IMG/VR virus record: IMGVR_UViG_3300025865_000006
Coordinates: 53,071-117,070 of that record
Strand: one strand, 5' to 3'
From: a virus
Length of the DNA stretch: 64,000 nt
The notes under the pieces are model-generated. The model made no database searches. It was not told the origin of the DNA and saw nothing but the letters and a program-made list of their open reading frames with translations. This document shows, piece by piece, positions 50,742-51,931 of this stretch. Every line of letters begins with the position of its first letter. The first letter of the stretch is position 1. The position numbers and the translations under genes are program-made.

Positions 50742-50815
50742 TAATCGGCAGTGAAGTTTAGAGATACTTCTCTTGAAATGAAAACCAAACTCTAAGCGAC
50801 CCAATTCTCCGATTA
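50742..50815 (+). ncRNA. Y-RNA-like element 1 (minimal)
   Basis: Outer stem TAATCGG/CCGATTA; AGTGAAG pairs locally with CTTC (50767-50770); loop TTTAGAG (50757-50763) pairs with CTCTAAG (50790-50796); 3' end AATTCTCC. The inserted loop is too short for a tRNA module. Confidence 0.6.
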
Positions 50816-50828
50816 ATTGAATATTATA

Positions 50829-50916
50829 TTATCTAGGTAGTGAAGGTTTTGGATACTTCTAAAAACTTCAAAATGTCTTTTGTAAAAAGCCAGAGCCACT
50901 AAATCCTCCTAGATAA
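50829..50916 (+). ncRNA. Y-RNA-like element 2
   Basis: Outer stem TTATCTAGG/CCTAGATAA; AGTGAAG...CTTC; pseudoknot GTTTTGG (50846-50852) with CCAGAGC (50890-50896); 3' AAATCCTCC. Insert about 30 nt, AU-rich, no tRNA arms. Confidence 0.6.
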
Positions 50917-50929
50917 ATTTAGAACCTAG

Positions 50930-51073
50930 TATTAGGTAGTGAAGCATAGGATTTCTTCATGGGAGCCGCATGTCGGGAGTTCAATTCTCTCTTCCCCGAA
51001 CAATCGCCGGGGAATAGCTCAGTGTTAGAGCAGCGGCCAGTAAAAAAGCCTACGCGACCAAATTCTCCTAATA
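50930..51073 (+). ncRNA. Y-RNA-like element 3 with permuted tRNA-like module
   Basis: Outer stem TATTAGG/CCTAATA; AGTGAAG...CTTC; pseudoknot GCATAGG (50944-50950) with CCTACGC (51049-51055). The insert reads as a permuted tRNA: anticodon-side GCCGC, T-arm GGGAG-TTCAATT-CTCTC, acceptor TTCCCCG capped by a 9-nt loop, CGGGGAA, D-arm GCTC-AGTGTTA-GAGC, anticodon-side GCGGC. This capped-acceptor layout is that of bacterial YrlA RNAs. Confidence 0.7.
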
Positions 51074-51079
51074 AATTTT

Positions 51080-51155
51080 GGCCCAATCGTCTAACGGTTG
51101 AGGATTGCAGATTTTCACTCTGCCGATCAGAGTTCGATTCTCTGTTGGGCTACCA
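51080..51155 (+). tRNA. tRNA-Glu (TTC)
   Basis: Acceptor GGCCCAA/TTGGGCT, anticodon stem GCAGA/TCTGC with loop TTTTCAC (TTC), T-loop TTCGATT, CCA. Confidence 0.92.
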
Positions 51156-51166
51156 AAGAGGTACAA

Positions 51167-51409
51167 ATGAAGAGTACGTTTAAAACTAAGAATTATACTG
51201 GGACAGCTTGTCTAGCAATGCTGATAGCGGTAGTTCTGTTCTTGGTTCTATATTTAGGACTGATCGGCGGGGTAATAACCTTGCTATGGAACTGGCTGTT
51301 AGTAGGACTATTTCAGTTCCCAATTATTAGTTGGGCGCAAGGAATAGGTATAGCACTTCTATTAGGTATAGTAGGTAGCTTCTTTAAAGGCCAAATAACA
51401 AGTAAATAA
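51167..51409 (+). CDS. Two-helix membrane protein, 80 aa
   Basis: ATG 51167 chosen because the longer frame runs into tRNA-Glu. Hydrophobic helices at about residues 14-38 and 48-75. Its stop overlaps the outer stem of Y-like element 4. Confidence 0.6.
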   Translation: MKSTFKTKNYTGTACLAMLIAVVLFLVLYLGLIGGVITLLWNWLLVGLFQFPIISWAQGIGIALLLGIVGSFFKGQITSK

Positions 51410-51538
51410 GGTAGTGCAGCCGTTGGTTACTTCACTTTTAATGAAGAGTAAAGGGTTCGAATCCCTTATCCTCCGTCATGGGGGATGGGTGTAATGGTAA
51501 CACGCTAAATATCCAATAGCGACTAATTCTCCTTATTT
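51404..51538 (+). ncRNA. Y-RNA-like element 4 with near-complete tRNA-like module
   Basis: Outer stem AAATAAGG/CCTTATTT; pseudoknot CGTTGG (51421-51426) with CCAATAG (51513-51519); 3' AATTCTCC. Insert: T-arm AAGGG-TTCGAAT-CCCTT (51451-51467), acceptor ATCCTCC, 5-nt cap GTCAT, acceptor GGGGGAT, D-arm GTGT...ACAC. All tRNA elbow elements are present in permuted order. Confidence 0.7.
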
Positions 51539-51552
51539 AATTTGCGTTTTAT

Positions 51553-51674
51553 ATTAGAGCAGTGAAGTGTTCAGATACTTCGGTTACAGTAGCTTCGGTT
51601 ACATCAGCAAGGTTCAACCCCCTGCAAACGGGATGAAAGTCTCGTGTTTTCTGGCACAGCAAATTCTCTCTAAT
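51553..51674 (+). ncRNA. Y-RNA-like element 5 with T-arm-like hairpin
   Basis: Outer stem ATTAGAG/CTCTAAT; AGTGAAG...CTTC; pseudoknot GTTCAGA with TCTGGC (one bulge). Insert contains a UUCG-capped hairpin GTAGC-TTCG-GTTAC, a T-arm CAAGG-TTCAACC-CCCTG and hairpin ACGGGA/TCTCGT; no clear D-arm. Confidence 0.6.
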
Positions 51675-51786
51675 CTAATTTAATTTTGTAACGGCCTACG
51701 TGCTTGCGAGCGGAGGGGTAATGAATTATTACCGAGGCAACAGGACTACGTAACCTGTAACATTTTATAAGCCCTTATAGTTATAA

Positions 51787-51931
51787 TTAGTTTATGGGTA
51801 GTGACGGTTTCGGATACTTCAACATATTAACACCAATTATAAAATGTCGTACGCCTCTAATAAGTAGGCTTGGCAACCTAACCCACGCGGGGACGCGCAT
51901 CCCGAAGTCATCTAATCCTCTCTATAACTAA
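51787..51931 (+). ncRNA. Y-RNA-like element 6
   Basis: Outer stem of about 10 bp (TTAGTT..ATGG / CTATAACTAA); GTGACG...CTTC; pseudoknot GTTTCGG (51807-51813) with CCGAAGT (51902-51908); 3' AATCCTCT. Insert of about 80 nt with GCCT/AGGC hairpin, no T-loop. Confidence 0.55.

What the first reader, a model, noticed from the sequence alone, without database searches (positions are those of the whole stretch)
50742..51931. Shared pseudoknot architecture across all six elements
In every unit the loop of the AGTGAAG/CTTC hairpin pairs with a segment just before the 3' AATYCTCY: TTTAGAG/CTCTAAG, GTTTTGG/CCAGAGC, GCATAGG/CCTACGC, CGTTGG/CCAATAG, GTTCAGA/TCTGGC, GTTTCGG/CCGAAGT. The bases differ while pairing is kept, which is covariation seen within one genome. 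I do not recall this exact motif; the inserts sit between the pseudoknot strands.
Basis: seen in the sequence. Interest (0 to 1): 0.78.

Follow-up and report, generated by a model that had tools for sequence, protein, structure and literature searches.

The report
Phage Y RNA array beside Ro60

Summary
Six related elements exist at 50742-51927, about 400 bp downstream of a phage Ro60 gene (TROVE+vWA, 48758-50341). In each, the 'loop' segment does pair with the segment before AATYCTCY, with different bases each time (some helices have a mismatch or bulge), and an outer stem P0 encloses it. P0 and this helix (P1) are nested. The pseudoknot rests only on AGTGAAG/CTTC, and that pairing fails. In the window it is broken in elements 4 and 6. 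I found the same RNA beside Ro60 in 108 phage and bacterial loci (218 elements by descriptor, some of them chance). There the three bases after GYG vary (AAG 35, UAG 34, CAG 31, AUA 12 of 176) while CUUC stays nearly fixed. Possible GAAG/CUUC pairing equals the shuffled expectation. P0 and P1 are strongly supported by an unbiased test (105/212 native sites against 5-8/210 with swapped 3' parts). Element 3 matches Rfam YrlA over its full length (30.9 bits, below the cutoff). Elements 3 and 4 carry permuted tRNA-like modules. Best reading: tandem phage Y RNAs with a shared, probably Ro60-binding, handle and differing inserts; a known kind, here with a consensus that Rfam does not hold.

The parts
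48758..50341 (+). Ro60 (TROVE + von Willebrand A) gene, 527 aa
   Evidence: Pfam TROVE 119.5 bits, vWA_Ro60 32.2 bits; PDB relatives 9l5y, 9kop, 2nvo Rsr
50742..50815 (+). Y RNA element 1: P0 TAATCGG/CCGATTA (50742-50748/50809-50815), GTG-AAG, P1 TTTAGAG/CTCTAAG (50757-50763/50790-50796), ATACTTC 50764-50770, 19-nt insert
   Evidence: P0+P1 fold as nested stems in the MFE structure
50830..50915 (+). Y RNA element 2: P0 TATCTAGG/CCTAGATA, P1 GTTTTGG/CCAGAGC (50846-50852/50890-50896), ATACTTC 50853-50859
50931..51072 (+). Y RNA element 3: P0 ATTAGG/CCTAAT, P1 CATAGG/CCTACG (50945-50950/51049-51054, one A.C mismatch), insert is a circularly permuted tRNA-like module
   Evidence: Rfam YrlA RF02553 at 50944-51058, 30.9 bits, full model length, below gathering 69; MFE fold with T arm, acceptor and D arm
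51404..51538 (+). Y RNA element 4: P0 AAATAAGG/CCTTATTT, GTG-CAG (breaks the proposed hairpin), P1 CCGTTGG/CCAATAG (51420-51426/51513-51519, one C.A mismatch), tRNA-like insert with T arm AAGGG-TTCGAAT-CCCTT (51451-51467)
   Evidence: weak tRNA match 51412-51467, 24.8 bits
51553..51674 (+). Y RNA element 5: P0 ATTAGAG/CTCTAAT, P1 TGTTCAGA/TCTGGCA (51568-51575/51650-51656, one bulged U), insert of hairpins without a clear tRNA fold
51792..51927 (+). Y RNA element 6: P0 TTATGGG/CTCTATAA, GTG-ACG (breaks the proposed hairpin), P1 GTTTCGG/CCGAAGT (51807-51813/51902-51908), insert without a tRNA fold

Best explanation
The six elements are tandem phage Y RNA genes. Each transcript folds into a shared handle: outer stem P0, then an internal loop with RGYG and a 3-nt HAG-like bulge on the 5' strand and YR..NUUYYC on the 3' strand, then inner stem P1, then the conserved UACUUC. 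This handle most likely binds the neighbouring phage Ro60. What lies beyond P1 differs: elements 3 and 4 carry a circularly permuted tRNA-like module, 1 and 2 are minimal, and 5 and 6 carry other hairpins. By analogy with studied Y RNAs, the handle docks on the Ro60 ring while the insert blocks access to the ring or tethers a partner such as a nuclease. Shown: anatomy, adjacency to Ro60, conserved nested stems, near-fixed motifs and tRNA-like folds. Inferred: transcription, Ro60 binding, and gating or tethering during infection.
For: Ro60 gene about 400 bp upstream on the same strand. The same RNA lies beside Ro60 in phages from crAss-like to Gordonia, Xanthomonas and Streptomyces phages and in Alphaproteobacteria, Acidobacteria and Deinococcus. 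Descriptor hits scoring 20 or more: 120 on the sense strand, 3 on the antisense strand, 14 in reversed controls for both strands. Motif-only sites near Ro60: 212 on + against 3 on -. P0+P1 of 12 bp or more in 105/212 native sites against 5-8/210 with swapped 3' parts. Rfam YrlA hits fall on the array next to Ro60 in the window (30.9 bits) and next to Ro60 in D. gobiensis (49.6), Rhizobium (59.4, 48.0), Bradyrhizobium (48.4, 40.5) and Rhodococcus (38.0, 37.6). A T arm (5 bp plus UUCRANN loop) occurs in 86 of 218 elements in 63 of 108 loci, and in elements 3 and 4 here. Literature: Ro60 orthologues bind Y or Y-like RNAs in all organisms studied (PMC4726728); YrlA has a tRNA-like domain and D. 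radiodurans Rsr is tethered by Y RNA to PNPase (PMC7790460); Y RNAs reported in mycobacteriophages (cited in PMC12282133).
Against: No transcript or binding data for this phage. All YrlA hits are below Rfam's gathering score. No sigma-70-type promoter was found in the array. Elements 1, 2, 5 and 6 have no clear tRNA-like module and rest on the shared handle alone.
Confidence: 0.88

Rival explanations
1. One reading: GAAG pairs with CUUC as a hairpin whose loop pairs with the 3' strand.
For: Four of six window elements can form GAAG/CUUC; 43 of 176 homologues can. In element 5 the hairpin wins in a nested-only model, probability 0.67.
Against: The GAAG partner varies (N1: A79 U52 C39 G6) while CUUC is nearly fixed. 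All-four pairing 43 against 41.2 shuffled; 72.8% against 72.5% of cells, no compensation. Broken in window elements 4 and 6. Hairpin probability is about 0 in elements 1, 2, 3, 4 and 6, though that model cannot hold both helices at once. In all six the bases right after P1' are CG or CA, which could pair with the UG of GUG and would use the hairpin's first G.
Confidence: 0.05
2. The inserts in elements 3 and 4 are real permuted tRNA genes, spliced or circularised into working tRNAs, and the P0-P1 handle is a processing device.
For: Acceptor, T and D arms in permuted order, within a region rich in ordinary tRNA genes.
Against: The handle also encloses inserts with no clear tRNA features (elements 1, 2, 5, 6), was found beside Ro60 in the loci examined, and the tRNA-like order matches the Rfam YrlA model. 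No clear anticodon arm in element 4.
Confidence: 0.04
3. The array is a decoy or buffer: tRNA-mimicking Y RNAs protect phage tRNAs from host anticodon nucleases or occupy Ro60, rather than tethering a nuclease.
For: Ten tRNA genes in the window. For Salmonella YrlA, competitive inhibition of an anticodon nuclease has been proposed, YrlA itself not being its substrate (PMC7790460).
Against: Four of six elements lack a clear tRNA-like module; no direct test.
Confidence: 0.15

Closest known systems
YrlA, Rfam RF02553 (bacterial Y RNA with tRNA-like domain)
   Same: Beside Ro60; two nested stems with an internal loop, then a permuted tRNA-like module; element 3 aligns over the full model. YrlA-like Rhizobium copies read UAC after the inner stem, as here.
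   Different: 30.9 bits, below the 69-bit gathering score. Internal-loop sequence RGYG-HAG and UACUUC after the inner stem instead of AUGC and CUAC. Four of six elements lack a clear tRNA-like module.
Bacterial and phage Y RNAs as a class (Chen et al. 2014, RNA 20:1715; content recalled, full text not held)
   Same: Several Ro60-adjacent small RNAs per genome, some tRNA-like; reported in bacteria and mycobacteriophages (as cited in PMC12282133).
   Different: Six in tandem here. Whether that paper already drew the P0/RGYG-HAG/P1/UACUUC consensus could not be checked.
Vertebrate Y RNA Ro60-binding stem
   Different: No sequence homology claimed; vertebrate and bacterial Y RNAs are described as not homologous (PMC4726728).

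Membership tests
Bacterial/phage Y RNA | Encoded next to a Ro60 (TROVE) gene | tested here: met
   Ro60 at 48758-50341, elements from 50742; the same handle in 108 Ro60 loci
Bacterial/phage Y RNA | 5' and 3' ends form a stem (candidate Ro60-binding handle) with an internal loop | tested here: met
   P0 and P1 nested; 105/212 native against 5-8/210 decoys
Bacterial/phage Y RNA | Binds Ro60 | not testable with these tools
   needs a binding assay
Bacterial/phage Y RNA | At least one Y RNA per genome has a tRNA-like domain (recalled criterion) | tested here: met
   elements 3 and 4
YrlA RF02553 | Score at or above Rfam's gathering cutoff (69 bits) | tested here: not met
   best 30.9 bits, element 3 only
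H-type pseudoknot | Both crossing helices conserved by compensatory change | tested here: not met
   GAAG/CUUC at the shuffled level

The most novel reading that the evidence does not exclude
The array is a kit of Ro60 adaptors: one fixed docking handle with six different effector modules, so that one phage Ro60 is switched between several RNA targets or partners, only some of them tRNA-related.
Probability: 0.2. Interest if true: 0.6.

Novelty: new member of a known kind. Interest (0 to 1): 0.4.

Why it matters
Rfam does not recognise these RNAs at its cutoffs: no Y RNA hit in the window or in 22 phage and bacterial Ro60 loci searched that way. A simple P0/RGYG-HAG/P1/UACUUC descriptor finds them in 108 Ro60 loci, often several per locus. 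That gives a testable handle for Ro60 recognition and suggests that many Y RNAs, in phages above all, go unannotated. It also corrects the fold before anyone designs mutants around a pseudoknot.

Tried and rejected
Pseudoknot topology: rejected on homologues. The first scans required GAAG/CUUC complementarity and could not test it, so I rescanned without that requirement. One search's first table used a mis-set register; one search corrects it. Broad pattern scan of viral contigs gave mostly chance hits, one real (L054, a 405-kb phage that also has TROVE). Listeria P100 as a transcript-supported test: its Ro60-like protein is DUF2828/DUF7788 and this motif was not found. Self-cleaving ribozyme or intron: no Rfam match. 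ARAGORN on rotated inserts was too lenient to use. Chen 2014, Sim and Wolin 2018 and other Y RNA papers are not held. The first bacterial-genome scan failed for lack of a conserved stretch.

Full report
The window lies in a 117-kb virus record. Three ordinary tRNA genes lie within or just after the array.

Observation. Each element has the order P0 - RGTG - NNN - P1 - (A)TACTTC - insert - P1' - YR...AATYCTCY - P0'; element 3 has TTTCTTC in place of TACTTC. A permutation test inside the window supports it: the sum of cognate P1 helices is 32 against a mean of 25.5, and 6 of 720 permutations reach it. P0 gives 45 against 30.0, and 1 of 720. P0 encloses P1, so these two helices are nested. A pseudoknot needs a third pairing, GAAG with CUUC. 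In the window that pairing is already broken in element 4 (GCAG) and element 6 (GACG).

Homologues. A scan of public viral contigs with the 5' motif found one convincing match outside this phage population, in a 405-kb phage (L054) that also encodes TROVE. I then went through Ro60 loci: 16 annotated phage loci, 80 viral contigs, 80 bacterial loci and 5 plasmids. A descriptor search found the RNA upstream or downstream of Ro60 on the same strand in phages and bacteria. Because those scans required GAAG/CUUC complementarity, I repeated the search without it. At score 20 or more it gave 120 sense-strand hits, 3 antisense hits and 14 hits in reversed controls counted on both strands. Near Ro60, 218 elements at score 18.5 or more were listed, in 108 loci; some of the lower-scoring ones will be chance.

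Testing the pseudoknot. In 176 distinct elements with a clear register, the three bases after GYG were AAG 35, UAG 34, CAG 31, AUA 12 and others, while the partner was UACUUC 129, UCCUUC 21, UUCUUC 12. All four GAAG/CUUC pairs were possible in 43, against 41.2 after shuffling (442 of 2000 shuffles at least as high). On 80 gap-free trimmed homologues (A3) the pair counter gave 72.8% paired against 72.5% shuffled and one double change against 0.5 expected. So I see no sign that the hairpin is maintained as a pairing. A conserved HAG and UACUUC could still touch each other in a non-standard way; nothing here tests that.

Testing P0 and P1. On A3 their covariation score is 1.228 against 0.248 shuffled (this includes the short extension below), but pairing of P0 and P1 had been required when those sequences were chosen, so this is not independent. 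An unbiased test is: choose sites near Ro60 by the 5' motif alone (212 on the + strand, 3 on the -) and ask for P0+P1 of at least 12 bp. Native sites: 105 of 212. Sites with the 3' part taken from another locus: 5, 8 and 5 of about 210. P0 and P1 are therefore real. In all six window elements the two bases after P1' are CG or CA, which can pair with the UG of GUG around a 3-nt bulge. In homologues this short extension pairs in 82% of cells, but the register was chosen to favour it, so I treat it as likely and not proven. Single-sequence folding gives P0 with P1 in elements 1, 3 and 4 and a hairpin probability near 0 in all but element 5.

What it is. YrlA also hits elements beside Ro60 in Deinococcus gobiensis, Rhizobium, Bradyrhizobium and Rhodococcus at 38-59 bits, all below the gathering score. 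Elements 3 and 4 contain acceptor, T and D arms in circularly permuted order, with T arms GGGAG-TTCAATT-CTCTC and AAGGG-TTCGAAT-CCCTT. Among the 218 listed elements, 86 in 63 loci contain such a T arm. This is the picture of bacterial Y RNAs: several beside each Ro60, some tRNA-like. Held papers say Ro60 orthologues bind Y or Y-like RNAs in all organisms studied (PMC4726728), that YrlA has a tRNA-like domain and D. radiodurans Rsr is tethered by Y RNA to PNPase (PMC7790460), and cite Y RNAs in mycobacteriophages (PMC12282133). The key paper, Chen et al. 2014, is not held, so I cannot say whether it already shows this consensus.

Mechanism, inferred. The shared P0-P1 handle with RGYG-HAG and UACUUC is the likely Ro60 docking site; inserts act as gates or tethers. 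Function during infection is untested.

Verdict. Real RNA array, real covarying stem, wrong topology; new members of a known kind.

Noticed in passing
L313 (Listeria phage P100) about 31100-31450, - strand: Upstream of gp165 (DUF2828/DUF7788, a Ro60-like protein) there are three tandem short stems sharing ACAGCAAWTACTA-like sequence (GGAATC..GATTCC, GAGAGC..GCTCTC, GGAAGC..GCTTCC): possibly a separate Y-like RNA family.
   Followed up: partly
50342-50544: About 200 bp between the Ro60 stop and the next small ORF, with a repeated ACAGGCTGGT; looks structured and is not explained by the Y RNA handle.
   Followed up: no
51685-51785: Stretch between elements 5 and 6 with several possible stems, without the P0/P1 handle.
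   Followed up: no
L138 10109-10250 (crAss-like phage cr112_1): tRNA match of full model length spread over 142 bp, so with a large insertion, within the Y RNA array downstream of TROVE.
   Followed up: no
L310 (Rhizobium beringeri plasmid) 1120-6691: rtcR, Ro60, YrlA copies and RtcB in a row: an RNA-repair operon on a plasmid predicted to be conjugative.
   Followed up: no
56801-62458: 1885-aa ORF built of many short repeats of the type YAQAQxDIK.
   Followed up: no
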